Assembly: GCA_937877715.1 (NCBI GenBank)
Contig: CALEHW010000013.1
Location: 1-64,000, forward strand
Direction of reading: 5' to 3'
DNA length: 64,000 nucleotides
DNA from: an uncultured Methylophaga sp.
GTDB taxonomy: Bacteria; Pseudomonadota; Gammaproteobacteria; GCF-002020875
The notes beneath the pieces are model-generated. The model worked only from the letters and a program-made list of their open reading frames with translations. It had not been told where the DNA came from and ran no database searches. Made by a program: the position numbers and the translations under genes. Positions 1-59,328 of the stretch are shown one piece after another; the first letter of the stretch is position 1, and each line of letters begins with the position of its first letter.

Positions 1-133
1 CCAGATACGCCGCCTGATTTCAACCCCTCAAACACCAGATTCGAGCATAACTCAAGAGATAAACAGTATTCTTTTGTTGTGTTATGTGTTGTTGCGCAAG
101 ACTTACTATATAGAGTGCAATATAAATAAACTA

Positions 134-247
134 CTAAGAGTTACTTAGAATAACTGATAGTCATCGGATCAATTAAAAATACTAAGAGTTACTTAGGGCT
201 TTGTGATGCCTCATAAGAGACCATCTGAAATGCTAAGAGTTACTTAG
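134..247. repeat. Three identical 15-bp inverted repeats
   Basis: The sequence CTAAGAGTTACTTAG occurs at 134-148, 182-196 and 233-247. Each copy is an inverted repeat (CTAAG, 5-bp spacer, CTTAG), and the intervals between copies are 33 and 36 bp. The copies are identical through all 15 bases while the DNA between them differs, which points to selection on the sites. They lie 200-320 bp upstream of the XRE-type regulator at 453. The simplest reading is operators for that repressor or for a gene left of the window. Confidence 0.75.
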
Positions 248-274: not shown

Positions 275-292
275 ATACGTATTTATACGTAT
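275..292. promoter_or_regulatory. ATACGTAT palindromic site, copy 1
   Basis: ATACGTATTTATACGTAT consists of two ATACGTAT half-sites separated by TT and is symmetric. It lies 160 bp upstream of the XRE regulator. Sites differing at a single base are found at 50192-50209 (before the ArsR gene) and 59311-59328 (between the DUF302 gene and a small membrane-protein gene). Its role as an operator is inferred; the regulator is unknown. Confidence 0.6.
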
Positions 293-452
293 GGATTAGT
301 ATTAAAGATTAAAATAGAATTCGTCTGTTTATATATCATTGAAGCTTGGAGGATCTTTCGTGATGTTGGAAAAGACTTTGTCTAACAGCAAATACTGTAG
401 AAATACCCTTGATATTTTAACGTTCAAAAGTGAGTTCTCAGGTGGACGATAG

Positions 453-794
453 ATGATCTTTGGAGAACGATTAAAGCAGGCAAGAAACAAGGCTGGATTA
501 TCGCAGGAGAATCTTGGAATAAAGATAGGCATTGCCCCATCATCTGCTAGCCCTAGAATTAATCAATATGAGAGAAATCGTCATAGGCCCAGTGACCAAG
601 TAATTGTTCAATTGGCGCTGGCACTTGGGGTGCCTACCGCCTTTTTTTATACAGAAGACAAGAATCTTACCAAATTAATTCTTCAATGCTCCCAGCTGGA
701 AGCTGGCAAACAAAAAACCCTCACTGAATATATTGAGAAAGAATATGGCATTAAATGTTGTGCAGAGGGCAAGTGCTGTATAGATGATATATGA
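453..794 (+). CDS. XRE-family HTH transcriptional regulator
   Basis: This 113-residue protein has an N-terminal Cro/C1-type helix-turn-helix (about residues 5-62, with RLKQARNKAGLSQENLG and an INQYERNRHRPS recognition region). A short helical tail follows. The C-terminus has two cysteine pairs, C102-C103 and C108-C109, separated by AEGK, so it could bind a metal, a persulfide or an Fe-S cluster; this is inference. AGGTGG about 7 bases before the ATG supports the start. It is convergent with recG. The repeats at 134-292 lie upstream and may be its targets. The XRE assignment is firm; the effector is unknown. Confidence 0.85.
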   Translation: MIFGERLKQARNKAGLSQENLGIKIGIAPSSASPRINQYERNRHRPSDQVIVQLALALGVPTAFFYTEDKNLTKLILQCSQLEAGKQKTLTEYIEKEYGIKCCAEGKCCIDDI

Positions 795-49795: not shown

Positions 49796-50098
49796 ATGAA
49801 AAAAGTTGCATTTTCGGTTATCGCTGTTGCCGCCATGATGGCAACAAGTGTTGCAAGTGCTGGTTGGTTCGGAAGTAATAATAGTGGCTGGAATAATGGT
49901 TATGATGATAACGATTGGCCAGAATGGACCCCAATGTACTGGATGGAAGAGATGATGGATGAGTGGGATAACGACGATGATGATTACCATCGTTATGGTG
50001 GCTATGCTCCACGTTACGGTTATGCGCCTGCTCCTTACTATCCAGCTCCTGCTGTTGCACCTCGTGTACCAGCCCCAGCCGCACCTGCTGTACAGTAA
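49796..50098 (+). CDS. Secreted sulfur-globule-like protein
   Basis: The 100-residue protein has a signal peptide (MKKVAFSVIAVAAMMATSVA, cleaved after ASA) and a low-complexity mature part. An Asn/Trp/Gly region, a WTPMYWMEEMMDEW segment, an acidic run, then Tyr/Gly/Pro/Ala-rich repeats (APRYGYAPAPYYPAPAV) follow. This composition matches proteins of the sulfur globule envelope in purple sulfur bacteria and relatives. ATG 49796 is chosen because GGAGA lies about 8 bases upstream. It sits beside fccAB with a strong promoter and terminator. The assignment rests on composition and context. Confidence 0.6.
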   Translation: MKKVAFSVIAVAAMMATSVASAGWFGSNNSGWNNGYDDNDWPEWTPMYWMEEMMDEWDNDDDDYHRYGGYAPRYGYAPAPYYPAPAVAPRVPAPAAPAVQ

Positions 50099-50191: not shown

Positions 50192-50209
50192 ATACGTATT
50201 TTTACGTAT
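50192..50209. promoter_or_regulatory. ATACGTAT palindromic site, copy 2
   Basis: ATACGTATTTTTACGTAT differs at one base from the copy at 275-292. It lies 58 bp before the likely ArsR start, the usual place for autoregulation by ArsR-family repressors. The ArsR protein is therefore the best candidate to bind all three copies (inference). Confidence 0.65.
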
Positions 50210-50247
50210 AGTTATTTTTCCCACGGCTAATAGAATATTACCCTCGC

Positions 50248-50607
50248 TTGAAGGAGGGATGTTTATATGGAGAAGATCAATTTGCCAGAGGGGGTAGTGA
50301 GCTCAAGAAGCTGTCTGCCATCATACGGGCGATCAGCCATCCAACACGCCTGAGAATACTGGGTGCCATTGGAATGGAGGAGAAGGTAGTCACCGATATT
50401 CTGGGTGAAGTAGGGACTACCCAGAGCAATGTCTCGCAACACGTTGAGGTGTTGCGCAAGGCAGGCATTCTGCAGTCACGAAGGGTACATAACAGTGTCT
50501 ACTGTTCAGTAGTTGATTCAGAGATCTTTGGTGTGATCTCCAGTGTCAGGGAATGTTTCTGTACAAATCGACCACATGAAGTGAGCACTCTTCGGCTGGT
50601 TGCTTGA
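50248..50607 (+). CDS. ArsR/SmtB-family regulator, apparent frameshift near the start
   Basis: The protein (up to 119 residues) is a winged-helix repressor: ELKKLSAIIRAISHPTRLRIL, then VGTTQSNVSQHVEVLRKAGI as recognition helix and a beta wing with SRRVHNSVYCSV. Cysteines C86-region and the CFC near residue 103 could sense metal or sulfur. The frame's only upstream start is TTG 50248, which lies before the strong AAGGAGG (50251-50257). The ATG 9 bases after that site (50267) is in another frame, reads MEKINLPEG, and would join the ArsR frame if the G5 tract at 50290-50294 had one more G. It is convergent with fccB. Confidence 0.85.
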   Translation: MKEGCLYGEDQFARGGSELKKLSAIIRAISHPTRLRILGAIGMEEKVVTDILGEVGTTQSNVSQHVEVLRKAGILQSRRVHNSVYCSVVDSEIFGVISSVRECFCTNRPHEVSTLRLVA

Positions 50608-50686: not shown

Positions 50687-52015
50687 CTAATCGGCAAATG
50701 TGTTTGAGGTGATATTCTCATACCAACTCAGAGCATAGTCGACCTCACGAGCACGGTTGGCAGCATTGCGCTTGTCACCGCTTGGGGTCAGACCACCTGA
50801 CATCTTTTGGATCTTGGAGCCATCCTCGCGCAATTTGTAGATTGCAGCGACTGAGATACCATCCTTCGGCTCGAAGGAGATCACGCTGTAACAGGTGTTG
50901 ACGTAGGCAGGGCTTCCTGGGGCCGCACCATTGAGCACAGCAACGATACCAGCTGCACAGACCTTAGCCTCGGAAGAGGCTGCGTAACCTGATTTGGGCA
51001 TTCCCTTGGCCGCACTGGCATCACCAATTACATGGATATTCTTGCGAATTGTGGATTCGAAGGTGTGCAGATTGACAGGACACCAACCGGAATCGTCAGT
51101 CAGGCCAACGGTAAAGGCAAGTGCACCTGCTTTCTGGTCAGGGATGACGTTAATGACGTCAGCCTCGAAATCCTCTACCGCAGCAGAGACGGTCATGCTA
51201 CCAGCATCAACCTCCTCAACTGCGCCACCCTCGGCAGCCTTGACCCAAGTAATGATGGAGTTCTCACCACCATTCTTCGCACCATCAAAGCCGTAGTGGT
51301 TTGTCCACCCTTCACGGAAGAGCCCAAACTTGGAGAACTTGTCCTTTGGATCAAGGATAATAATCTTGGATTTGGGTTTATTCTTCTTAAGATATCCAGC
51401 AATCAGGCTGGCACGCTCATATGGCCCTGGAGGGCAGCGGAATGGGTTGCGTGGTGGACAGATTAGAACTGTTCCACCGTCCTTCATTGAGGTGATCTGA
51501 TCGTGAAGTAGCTGAGTCTGCTTGCCAGCCTTCCAGGCGTGAGGAATCTTGCTGTTGGCAACGTCCTCATTGTGCCCTTCGACAAACTTGAAGCTGACAC
51601 CCGGTGAGACTACGCAACGGTCAAAGCCGTAACTACCACCACCGGCAGTCTTGACTGCATTGTCGGTGATATCGATTACCGTGTCATTGACGATATTGAT
51701 TCCCTCTGCAGCGAGACCATCGTAACCGTGCGCCAGGTAATCCAGCTTGCGCTCGCCTGCGATCACAAAGTTACTCATGAAGCAGGTATGGTAGGTAGTA
51801 TTGGCTTCGATCAGGGTGACATCAATAGCTGGGTCTCCCTTCTTGATGTGGCGGGCAGCAGTTGCACCACCCATACCACCACCAACCACCACCACACGTG
51901 CCTTGGCAGCAGAAGCAGATGGAGTGTATAAGGAGAAGCCCGCAGCGGCTGCTCCAAGCGTACCACCAGAAACCTTTAGAAAGTCTCTACGGTTGAATTG
52001 TTTTTTATTGCTCAT
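50687..52015 (-). CDS. fccB: Flavocytochrome c sulfide dehydrogenase, flavoprotein subunit
   Basis: FccB oxidises sulfide in the periplasm and passes electrons to the cytochrome subunit. The 442-residue protein has a Tat signal (RRDFLK at 9-14) and an FAD site VVVVGGGMGGATAARHI. The cysteine that covalently holds FAD is C78 in TYHTCFMSNFVIAG. The redox-active disulfide pair is supplied by the CPPRNPFRCPPGPYERA region and VNTCYSVISF. It follows fccA with a 15-base gap. Confidence 0.97.
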   Translation of the reverse strand: MSNKKQFNRRDFLKVSGGTLGAAAAGFSLYTPSASAAKARVVVVGGGMGGATAARHIKKGDPAIDVTLIEANTTYHTCFMSNFVIAGERKLDYLAHGYDGLAAEGINIVNDTVIDITDNAVKTAGGGSYGFDRCVVSPGVSFKFVEGHNEDVANSKIPHAWKAGKQTQLLHDQITSMKDGGTVLICPPRNPFRCPPGPYERASLIAGYLKKNKPKSKIIILDPKDKFSKFGLFREGWTNHYGFDGAKNGGENSIITWVKAAEGGAVEEVDAGSMTVSAAVEDFEADVINVIPDQKAGALAFTVGLTDDSGWCPVNLHTFESTIRKNIHVIGDASAAKGMPKSGYAASSEAKVCAAGIVAVLNGAAPGSPAYVNTCYSVISFEPKDGISVAAIYKLREDGSKIQKMSGGLTPSGDKRNAANRAREVDYALSWYENITSNTFAD

Positions 52016-52030
52016 TATATATTCTCCTCC

Positions 52031-52681
52031 TTATTTCTGACTACCGTAGTAGCTGATGACTGCGTCGAGCCCGGACTCGCCCTCACTGGCAAGTAGCTGA
52101 TCAAGTTTTTTCTTCATCTTCCTGCTAATGTCGCGTTCACCACTACGGAAATCGGCCATGGTGTATTTGAGATATGGAACCCATTGACCAGAAAGGATGC
52201 CTGAATCATCTGATGGATCAGAACCGGCATCATTGTGACACTTCTCACAGTATGTATTATGTAGGTCTTCACCTTTTGCAATGGTACGGTGATGTGCTTT
52301 CTGACCTGCTTTTTCGAACGTAAGGCCTGCATAATGACCAGCCATTAAGCCAATCTCCTCATCAGTATAACCCTTTGCAATGCGACCCATAATGGTGGAT
52401 CTGGTGTCGCCATCACGAAACTCTTCCATTGCCTCAACTAGATAATCTTCTGACATTCCGGCAATGGATGGGGTTGCAGGCCCATTACTGTTGCCGTCTG
52501 TGCCGTGACATCCCTCACAGGTACTTGCCAAGAGCGCACCAGATGCACCCGCGATAACTTTTGGCGGTGCTTTTTTCACAGCAGGTGCAGCGGCTACCTT
52601 CTCTTCAGCGGGTTGTTGTGTGGCACAGCCAGCTACTATTGCAGCGGCCAGAACCGAGATTGCAAACGTTTTTAGTTGCAT
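52031..52681 (-). CDS. fccA: Flavocytochrome c sulfide dehydrogenase, di-heme cytochrome subunit (lipoprotein)
   Basis: From ATG 52681, supported by GGGAGGA 7 bases upstream, the protein has 216 residues. Two heme sites, CEGCH and CEKCH, are separated by about 95 residues, as in FccA. The signal peptide ends in a lipobox (IVAGC, Cys19), followed by a QQPAEEKVAAAPAVKKAPP linker. Thus the enzyme is probably anchored to a membrane rather than free in the periplasm as in Allochromatium. It is the promoter-proximal gene of fccAB. Confidence 0.95.
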   Translation of the reverse strand: MQLKTFAISVLAAAIVAGCATQQPAEEKVAAAPAVKKAPPKVIAGASGALLASTCEGCHGTDGNSNGPATPSIAGMSEDYLVEAMEEFRDGDTRSTIMGRIAKGYTDEEIGLMAGHYAGLTFEKAGQKAHHRTIAKGEDLHNTYCEKCHNDAGSDPSDDSGILSGQWVPYLKYTMADFRSGERDISRKMKKKLDQLLASEGESGLDAVISYYGSQK

Positions 52682-53100
52682 TGATTGATCCTCCCTCAAT
52701 TTTATGATCATTTATTATATTCAACTGCGCCGTGCCTACCCTCGCATAACCCAACAAGTTATTTTGTGAGTAGGTGGCACCAGCCATCCGATTTACATCG
52801 AACGAGGAGCCATTCTCTATAAAAAATGTTACTGACGCAACAGTTTATTTTGATAATTAGAGTATTAGTATTTCTTGATATTCAAATGGTCGCATAAAAA
52901 ACCACTGGTCAGGAGACGGACGATTATCAGGCCGGTTTCGGTCTATGCTGGAATAAATTGGAATCCAAATAATCCGAAACCTATATATAGATGCATGGTG
53001 ATGGCGAATATTCCTCTTTTCCAGATGTTTTCTTCAGGGCCCTGTTGTAGTCTTGTTCTATTGTTGCTGGTGTAAGCAGAATTATCTGTAGCGGACGGGA
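52682..53100. other. Gene-free gap upstream of fccA and the SPOR gene
   Basis: The gap separates divergent genes and presumably holds both promoters. Only short frames without Shine-Dalgarno or composition support are present. No ATACGTAT palindrome was found here, so if the ArsR protein controls fccAB it must use a different or degenerate site. Confidence 0.5.
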
Positions 53101-57569: not shown

Positions 57570-58523
57570 ATGAATACATTTACTGAGACCATTCAGTCTA
57601 GGAAGCAGGTGCTCGAGGAGCACCTGGGAAGCTTCATGGGGAGACTTGCGGAACGCTGTGCAGATGGTTGGGGTGATCAGGAGCGTCTCGATCATTTGTT
57701 GCTCGATGCATTGGATAATTGTGATGATATCCCGGCCTGCCGGCTACTCTACATTGTTGATATTAATGGTCTGCAGTTGAGCTCCAATGTCTTCTCGACT
57801 GGCAAGCTCGACTCTTCAACGGTTGGTCAGGATCTCTCGGAACGTCCCTATATTGCCACCGTGGTCCCCAGTAGTGGTTTTCACCTCTCGGATGTCTATA
57901 TCAGTCAGAAGAACCGCCGTAGCCTGATTACTGCGGTACAGCTAATCCGCTCGGCAGATGGAGCGAAGGGATTTGTCTGTGCCGACTTTGAGCTTGGGAT
58001 GTTGCCTGAGATCGACCGGCCCTCGGAGGATCGGAGGATCTGGATGCAGGTCAAGGGTGATCCATCCATTCGAGAGACCCTGTTCATGCAGAGCAGAGCA
58101 ACCAGCCCCATGGATGAGCGCATCGATGATGTGCTCTCCACAATTGATGAGTTGATTGTGGAGCGTGGTATTTTTCATGCCAAGCTACACTTTGCCAGTT
58201 CACGTGCAACTCTTTGGATTTACGACGACCCCTACCGTTATCGGGTTCATGTGTTGGATGAGATTCTCAACCCCTCAATCTGTCTGGCCTATCCGCTGCG
58301 CCCCTACCCTGATGATGCACTGGTTCCAAAGGAGATGGTGCGGGATGTTCTGGAGCGTTTCAGGTGGTTGCGTGAGATTGATGAGACTATCTATCTGCGT
58401 GCCGGTTCACTGAATATCATCAATGGTATTGTTGCTCTCAATTTCTCCTGTGATGGCTCCCACTATCTGCCATATGAGGAGTTTATGGATATGGATGAGA
58501 GCTTCTGGTTTGGCTCGGATTGA
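57570..58523 (+). CDS. PDC (Cache) sensor domain protein without output domain
   Basis: The 317-residue protein has a PDC/dCache-type sensor fold (about 60-165, RLLYIVDINGLQLSSNVF and LSERPYIATVVPSSGFHLSD). A second region (180-315) is rich in aromatic and charged residues (TLWIYDDPYRYRVHVLDEIL). No signal peptide, membrane helix, kinase, methyl-accepting or GGDEF domain is visible, so it is a cytoplasmic stand-alone sensor. Ligand and partner are unknown. Confidence 0.8.
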   Translation: MNTFTETIQSRKQVLEEHLGSFMGRLAERCADGWGDQERLDHLLLDALDNCDDIPACRLLYIVDINGLQLSSNVFSTGKLDSSTVGQDLSERPYIATVVPSSGFHLSDVYISQKNRRSLITAVQLIRSADGAKGFVCADFELGMLPEIDRPSEDRRIWMQVKGDPSIRETLFMQSRATSPMDERIDDVLSTIDELIVERGIFHAKLHFASSRATLWIYDDPYRYRVHVLDEILNPSICLAYPLRPYPDDALVPKEMVRDVLERFRWLREIDETIYLRAGSLNIINGIVALNFSCDGSHYLPYEEFMDMDESFWFGSD

Positions 58524-58602: not shown

Positions 58603-59085
58603 TCAGAAGGCACCCTCAGCAGCACCAGAGATTATGTTATCCATCTTCGCTGCAACAGCCTCAGCCAACTCTTTTGCCTCTGGGGGCATCTCCATGGCAG
58701 TAATCATCTCGGAGTTCATGCTCCACATCCTGATCTTCCCATCCAGCCCCTCAACCACTGCGATTCGGCAGGGCATTACGATGACAAAGGCGTCAGAGAC
58801 GTCTGCCAGTACGGCGGCGGTCTTGGCATCACAGAGGTTGTGGATGCTGAGATGGCGATATGGTTTTCCGGTAACGGCCTCTACCTGCTTGTATAGAGGG
58901 AACATGGCCACGTGAAGAATGCCCTCACTGATGGAGAGCTGTTTGATTGATTCATCAACCTCTTCAGCAGTGATACCTTCTTCGATATCTGTTGCCACAT
59001 ACATGTCCTTAAACTCAAACGCACCCGCCTGTGTAGAGATTATGGCGAATGAGAGTGCAACCAGTAGTTTGGTGATATTTTTCAT
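58603..59085 (-). CDS. DUF302 domain secreted protein
   Basis: From ATG 59085 (MKNITKLLVALSFAIISTQA) the 160-residue protein has a signal peptide and a DUF302 domain with LCDAKTAAVLADVSDAFVIV and MPCRIAVVEGLDGKIRMWSM. DUF302 proteins are common in sulfur-oxidising and hydrogen-sulfide-exposed bacteria; their biochemical role is not established. The ATACGTAT palindrome at 59311-59328 lies upstream, beyond a possible small gene. Confidence 0.88.
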   Translation of the reverse strand: MKNITKLLVALSFAIISTQAGAFEFKDMYVATDIEEGITAEEVDESIKQLSISEGILHVAMFPLYKQVEAVTGKPYRHLSIHNLCDAKTAAVLADVSDAFVIVMPCRIAVVEGLDGKIRMWSMNSEMITAMEMPPEAKELAEAVAAKMDNIISGAAEGAF

Positions 59086-59146: not shown

Positions 59147-59263
59147 TCACCGTTCAGTACAAAAAATTCTCTGGTAGGGGATTCTGGGAATCAGGCGGCG
59201 CCCTGCAACAGACAGCGCAATACCCACACCATACAGGATGCCGGCTACGGTTGAGAGAACCAT
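59147..59263 (-). CDS. Possible small membrane peptide
   Basis: A 38-residue frame (MVLSTVAGILYGVGIALSVA, then a basic GRRLIPRIPYQRIF tail) lies between the ATACGTAT palindrome and the DUF302 gene, on the same strand. It has one predicted transmembrane helix. No strong Shine-Dalgarno is visible. It may be a real small protein co-transcribed with DUF302 or the 3' remnant of a larger membrane gene; the frame stays open about 12 codons before the ATG. Confidence 0.35.
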   Translation of the reverse strand: MVLSTVAGILYGVGIALSVAGRRLIPRIPYQRIFCTER

Positions 59264-59310
59264 CTCTGATGAGGTGATTCGCTCACTACTGTTCTTGAGT
59301 TATGAGGTAA

Positions 59311-59328
59311 ATACGTAGTTATACGTAT
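59311..59328. promoter_or_regulatory. ATACGTAT palindromic site, copy 3
   Basis: ATACGTAGTTATACGTAT differs at one base from the copy at 275-292. It lies between the DUF302 gene (minus) and the small membrane protein gene (plus), 163 bp before the latter. Confidence 0.65.

What the first reader, a model, noticed from the sequence alone, without database searches (positions are those of the whole stretch)
275..292. One 18-bp palindrome at three distant loci suggests an undescribed regulon
ATACGTAT-TT-ATACGTAT occurs at 275-292, with one-base variants at 50192-50209 (before an ArsR-family repressor beside fccAB and a sulfur-globule-like gene) and 59311-59328 (between DUF302 and a small membrane protein). 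Chance recurrence of a 17/18 match three times in 64 kb, each in an intergenic control region, is very unlikely. The ArsR protein is the natural candidate because its site is where autoregulation would occur.
Basis: partly seen in the sequence, partly recalled or inferred. Interest (0 to 1): 0.7.

Follow-up and report, generated by a model that had tools for sequence, protein, structure and literature searches.

The report
Genus-wide palindromic control site, undescribed regulon
A short mirror-image DNA word, repeated in front of about thirty genes in five related marine sulfur-oxidising bacteria, sits at a fixed distance from where transcription should begin, so it is very probably the switch of a previously undescribed gene set, perhaps read by an ArsR-type regulator, although nothing has been tested in the laboratory.

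Summary
The three window sites are copies of TACGYA-N4-TRCGTA. The genome has eight exact TACGTA-N4-TACGTA copies (about 0.1 expected; reversed control 0). Five of six species of the genus carry 31 copies of the degenerate form (control 0). They recur before the same genes: arsR, small membrane proteins, the tcdA/sulfur-globule locus, DUF302, dCache, crcB. The sixth species keeps several of these genes but has no site and no close ArsR homologue.

A -10 box lies 30-32 bp from the dyad at 24 of 29 sites, with a poor -35. The site thus sits near -43 and seems to take the place of the -35 box, which favours activation over simple repression.

The ArsR family is the leading reader (about 0.55), by its own sites and by distribution. 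The XRE proteins have their own operator. FNR and NarL/FixJ response regulators fit worse, although the 16-bp layout and position are NarL-like. The window ArsR lacks one of the two cysteines that define SqrR/BigR/SoxR, and its start looks frameshifted in this assembly. fccAB has no site. The motif is not enriched elsewhere in the class.

The parts
275..292 (+). Site 1, ATACGTATTTATACGTAT, upstream of a short leader ORF and an orphan XRE gene
315..320 (+). Predicted -10 box TAGAAT, 31 bp from the dyad of site 1
453..794 (+). Orphan XRE-family regulator (HTH_3) with a Cys-rich C terminus; likely target
   Evidence: Pfam HTH_3; translation
49796..50098 (+). Sulfur-globule-like small secreted protein upstream of site 2; no Pfam match
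50192..50209 (+). Site 2, ATACGTATTTTTACGTAT, upstream of arsR
50231..50236 (+). Predicted -10 box TAGAAT, 30 bp from the dyad of site 2
50248..50607 (+). ArsR-family regulator, leading candidate reader; probable true start ATG 50267 in another frame, with a frame break in the GGGGG run at 50290-50294
   Evidence: HTH_5 and NCBIfam ArsR/SmtB; translations; homologues
50687..52015 (-). fccB, flavocytochrome c sulfide dehydrogenase flavoprotein; convergent with arsR, no site of its own
   Evidence: Pfam FCSD_central and FCSD-flav_bind
52031..52711 (-). fccA-like diheme cytochrome c
57570..58523 (+). dCache-like protein; its relatives are site targets in G002, G003 and G005
58603..59085 (-). DUF302 protein, probable target of site 3
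   Evidence: Pfam DUF302; site before the DUF302 operon also in G002, G003 and G004
59147..59263 (-). Remnant of the small membrane protein that precedes DUF302 in relatives
59311..59328 (-). Site 3, oriented by its target as the minus strand; weak -10 TAGTGA at 59283-59288

Best explanation
The palindrome AAATACGYA-NN-TRCGTATTT is the binding site of one transcription regulator that controls a regulon in five species of this genus. The site lies about 43 bp upstream of the predicted start, where a -35 box should be, at fixed distance from the -10 box. The bound protein therefore probably works directly with RNA polymerase as an activator; blocking a weak -35 is the alternative. It also controls its own gene. 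Shown by computation: the motif, its enrichment, its recurrence at the same genes, the -10 spacing and the loss pattern.
For: 31 sites against 0 control in five genomes. Same targets across species: arsR in 5, tcdA-downstream membrane protein in 5, DUF302 operon in 4, crcB in 2. Conservation in the tcdA-downstream promoters is concentrated on the site and two -10 bases. A -10 box at 30-32 bp in 24 of 29 sites against a 6.6% background; 0 of 5000 shuffles reach the observed score. G001 lacks the sites and both ArsR groups yet keeps DUF302, dCache, coiled-coil and 63-aa target genes. ArsR is a site target in every site-bearing species.
Against: No binding or expression data. Known ArsR proteins are mostly repressors. 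The fcc-linked ArsR clade is missing from G004, whose site-bearing ArsR falls outside it. The XRE-linked ArsR operon has no TACGYA site. The window arsR looks frameshifted. The 16-bp layout and the -43 position also suit NarL-type activators. Both crcB sites lack the -10 at the usual spacing. Only the ArsR, Crp/FNR and GerE families were profiled across the six species.
Confidence: 0.55

Rival explanations
1. A NarL/FixJ-family response regulator reads the site as two inverted heptamers (7-2-7) and activates from about -43. ArsR is then only one of its targets.
For: TACGYAN-NN-NTRCGTA is 16 bp like the NarL site TACCCCTAAAGGGGTA, and NarL sites at napF (-40 to -49) and yeaR (-38 to -47) have the same position (PMC4549865). 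FixJ selects GTAMGTAG (PMC4999443). RR-A, in a GAF-kinase/response-regulator/rhodanese set beside a DsrC-like gene, is present in all five site-bearing species.
Against: RR-A is also in G001, with the same recognition helix but no site. The region upstream of the RR-A operon has no TACGYA site but carries a different conserved NarL-like block close to TATCCC-N4-GGGATA in the site-bearing species. RR-C, the only other such regulator in G000, was not found in G002 or G005. The motif is not enriched in 365 other genomes of the class.
Confidence: 0.17
2. Another regulator reads the site, for instance FNR with changed specificity or a member of a family not surveyed here.
For: FNR orthologues occur in the five site-bearing species and not in G001. 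Most regulator families were not profiled.
Against: The FNR and other Crp-type recognition helices keep E-x-x-S-R, which reads TTGAT-N4-ATCAA (established knowledge), not TACGYA. Among the neighbours read, no other regulator gene carries the site as consistently as arsR.
Confidence: 0.23
3. XRE proteins read the site, as the first reader also allowed.
For: Site 1 lies upstream of an XRE gene. XRE genes are paired with ArsR in five species.
Against: All XRE-ArsR operons carry a different palindrome, TTAAGT-N3-ACTTAA, and the orphan XRE has three CTAAGAGTTACTTAG copies of the same form.
Confidence: 0.05

Closest known systems
SqrR / BigR / SoxR / sHdrR, sulfane-sulfur-responsive ArsR repressors
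   Same: ArsR fold family; the C-terminal Cys is kept; sulfur-oxidation setting; a site at its own gene. Closest solved relatives are NolR and SqrR.
   Different: The fcc-linked ArsR has Gly or Asp in place of the first defining Cys and a Cys in the wing. The operator sequence is new here, and the promoter layout suggests activation. sox/fcc genes carry no site in the window.
CzrA / SmtB operators
   Same: Inverted half-sites about 10 bp apart and a QSNVS-type recognition helix (from established knowledge).
   Different: Half-site TGAA/TTCA there, TACGYA here. Those proteins are metal-released repressors.
NarL/NarP 7-2-7 sites (napF, yeaR) and FixJ sites
   Same: 16-bp inverted repeat with TAC...GTA ends, centred in the low -40s, no good -35 (PMC4549865); FixJ consensus GTAMGTAG (PMC4999443).
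   Different: G at heptamer position 4, not in the NarL consensus. The distribution of NarL-type regulators does not match that of the sites.

Membership tests
ArsR/SmtB family (protein at 50248-50607) | Winged-helix HTH_5 domain above the curated cut-off | tested here: met
   PF01022 37.2 bits against 22; NF033788 66.2 bits against 55
SqrR/BigR/SoxR sulfane-sulfur sensors | Two conserved cysteines (Cys50 and Cys116 in SoxR) | tested here: not met
   First Cys replaced by Gly/Asp in the fcc-linked ArsR, second kept. Both present in the XRE-linked paralogue.
SqrR/BigR/SoxR sulfane-sulfur sensors | BigR equivalog score | tested here: not met
   NF040642 41.6 bits against cut-off 155
SqrR/BigR/SoxR sulfane-sulfur sensors | Release from DNA on polysulfide treatment | not testable with these tools
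   Needs purified protein
Regulon (one motif, shared targets) | Same site at promoters of corresponding genes in several species | tested here: met
NarL-type 7-2-7 regulon | 16-bp inverted heptamers matching TACYYMT | tested here: not met
   Length and TAC ends agree; position 4 is invariably G
NarL-type 7-2-7 regulon | Cognate NarL-family regulator with the same distribution as the sites | tested here: not met
   RR-A also in G001; RR-C not found in G002 or G005
Class-II-like activated promoter | Site at fixed distance from the -10, replacing the -35 | tested here: met
   24 of 29 at 30-32 bp; median -35 score 1.9 of 8.5. Start sites themselves are predicted only.

The most novel reading that the evidence does not exclude
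An ArsR-family protein that has lost one canonical sulfur-sensing cysteine and has one in its wing acts as a class-II-like activator. It replaces the -35 box at fixed distance from the -10 box at a whole set of promoters for small membrane proteins, sulfur-globule and DUF302 genes: an ArsR regulon switched on by binding rather than by release.
Probability: 0.3. Interest if true: 0.7.

Novelty: new member of a known kind. Interest (0 to 1): 0.48.

Why it matters
It gives a defined DNA code and a gene list for control in uncultivated marine sulfur oxidisers, where such regulation has hardly been mapped. It groups several unnamed small membrane proteins with DUF302, dCache and sulfur-globule genes under one switch, which is a handle on their function. 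If an ArsR protein activates these promoters, it would widen what this large family, known mostly for repressors, can do.

Tried and rejected
Terminator or hairpin: rejected because the site precedes a -10 box at fixed spacing. Mobile repeat: rejected because flanks share no sequence beyond the site. Regulon spread through the class: of 369 genomes, eight outside the genus had one hit each and twelve had a control hit; the contexts read show no shared targets. Crp/FNR proteins: helices predict TTGAT sites. NarL-type RR-A and RR-C: distribution, and RR-A's own conserved block, disagree. XRE: own operator. GTDB scan with the ArsR alignment: only genus members plus one distant betaproteobacterial hit. 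Scan with the wider ArsR alignment was swamped by the common rhodanese-linked ArsR. Bias of the TGCGTA half to the promoter side: 8 against 3, not conclusive. Better -35 boxes in site-free G001 promoters: suggestive, but they were chosen as the best match over a region. Literature searches found no description of this motif or regulon.

Full report
1. The observation. The invariant core is TACGTA-N4-TACGTA. The genome has eight exact copies and none of the reversed control; about 0.11 would be expected from base composition (own calculation). In other species one half is often TGCGTA, so the genus motif is TACGYA-N4-TRCGTA with A/T flanks. It occurs 31 times in five of the six species held, with zero for the control in every genome, and not at all in G001. 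The stricter ATACGYA-N4-TRCGTAT occurs 28 times. Outside the genus it is not enriched: eight sampled genomes have one hit each and twelve have a control hit, and the contexts read show no shared targets. The genus is known here only from metagenome bins; two records bear SI sample labels, which I take for Saanich Inlet.

2. The targets. Sites recur before the same genes in different species: arsR (all five site-bearing species); the 45-52 aa membrane protein downstream of tcdA, followed in several species by a sulfur-globule-like gene (all five); a 57-62 aa membrane protein, alone or with DUF302 or the dCache protein (G000, G003, G004, G005); dCache with DUF302 (G002); crcB (G000, G005); a 63-aa protein near purD (G003, G005). 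In G000 the DUF302 gene and an intact copy of the small membrane gene lie apart, and each has its own site. In the tcdA-downstream promoters conservation is concentrated on the site, two bases of the -10 and the start codon. Site 3 in the window probably serves the minus strand: a remnant of the small membrane protein lies between it and DUF302. fccAB, beside arsR, has no site. FccB, CrcB, DsrC, ArsR and XRE are named from Pfam; the sulfur-globule match is weak and below the cut-off.

3. Promoter anatomy. A -10 hexamer lies 30-32 bp from the dyad at 24 of 29 sites, against a rate of 6.6% elsewhere in the same stretches. For 23 sites oriented by their target gene, the score at 31/32 exceeds every one of 5000 shuffles at any offset. 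Three further sites (L048, L053, L054) were oriented partly by this box and should be left out of a strict count; several other orientations were revised after the target gene was recognised. The dyad is thus near -43. The -35 region is poor: median score 1.9 of 8.5, zero or below at 7 of 23 promoters, and poor at most arsR promoters. A site that stands where the -35 should be, at constant distance from the -10, is the layout of activated promoters such as NarL at napF and yeaR (PMC4549865). A repressor overlapping a weak -35 is the alternative.

4. Three lines point to the ArsR family. A site precedes an arsR gene in every species that has sites. G001 has no member of the fcc-linked or XRE-linked ArsR groups and no site, but keeps DUF302, dCache, the coiled-coil and the 63-aa genes, with no palindrome upstream. 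The spacing of half-sites, 10 bp, suits an ArsR dimer (inference from CzrA and SmtB). The two ArsR groups have nearly the same recognition helix, so which one acts is open; G004's site-bearing ArsR falls outside the fcc-linked clade.

5. Rivals tested. XRE genes have their own conserved palindrome, TTAAGT-N3-ACTTAA, and three CTAAGAGTTACTTAG copies precede the window's orphan XRE. FNR is absent from G001 too, but its helix predicts TTGAT sites. The 16-bp TAC...GTA layout and the -43 position look like NarL, and TACGTA like the FixJ consensus GTAMGTAG (PMC4999443). Yet the genome has only two such regulators. RR-C was not found in G005 or G002. RR-A is kept with an unchanged recognition helix in G001, and the region upstream of its own operon has a different conserved NarL-like block, close to TATCCC-N4-GGGATA, in the five site-bearing species.

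6. Sensing. The closest solved relatives by sequence are NolR, SqrR, BigR and YgaV. SqrR, BigR, SoxR and sHdrR use two cysteines (PMC12423496, PMC10451225). The fcc-linked ArsR has lost the first (Gly or Asp) and has a wing Cys and the C-terminal FC; the XRE-linked paralogues keep both. It is an ArsR protein but fails a defining feature of the SqrR group. PMC12423496 notes that many sulfur-linked ArsR regulators lack the pair and may act differently. A thiol or sulfane-sulfur signal remains an inference.

7. Caveats. The window arsR probably starts at ATG 50267 (MEKINLPEG, like MEQMNLPTEG in G005), but that frame fails at a run of five G at 50290-50294; assembly error and true frameshift cannot be told apart here. 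Only three regulator families were profiled. G001 is one species, and about 46% of its sequence was read directly. Start sites are predicted, and nothing has been measured.

Noticed in passing
window 134-148, 182-196, 233-247: Three direct copies of CTAAGAGTTACTTAG, about 48-51 bp apart, upstream of the orphan XRE gene; same form as TTAAGT-N3-ACTTAA before the XRE-ArsR operons of five species. Probably the XRE operator.
   Followed up: partly
window 453-794 and L109-L113: XRE proteins end in Cys pairs (KCC, ECC) and most are paired with an ArsR that keeps the SqrR-type cysteines: a possible second thiol-sensing switch.
   Followed up: partly
window 50267-50300: The reading frame from the Shine-Dalgarno-supported ATG breaks at a run of five G before the conserved ArsR domain.
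   Followed up: partly
window 363-452: 29-codon leader ORF with a good ribosome site, stop directly before the XRE start; possible translational coupling.
   Followed up: no
window 1-55 and L030 end (G000:C3:65980): The first ~55 bases of the window are the reverse complement of the end of contig C3, so a repeated element breaks the assembly here; a degenerate site lies about 100 bp from that end of C3.
   Followed up: no
L288 about 2010-2035, L289:1433, L291:841: Conserved NarL-like block close to TATCCC-N4-GGGATA between a dsrA-like gene and the RR-A two-component operon: a possible response-regulator site for dsr genes.
   Followed up: partly
L291:1877-2563: A Cas6-family protein (PF09559, 182 bits) is encoded in the operon with the DsrC-like protein and RR-A; the gene order is kept in all six species, an odd neighbour for a CRISPR endonuclease family.
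   Followed up: no
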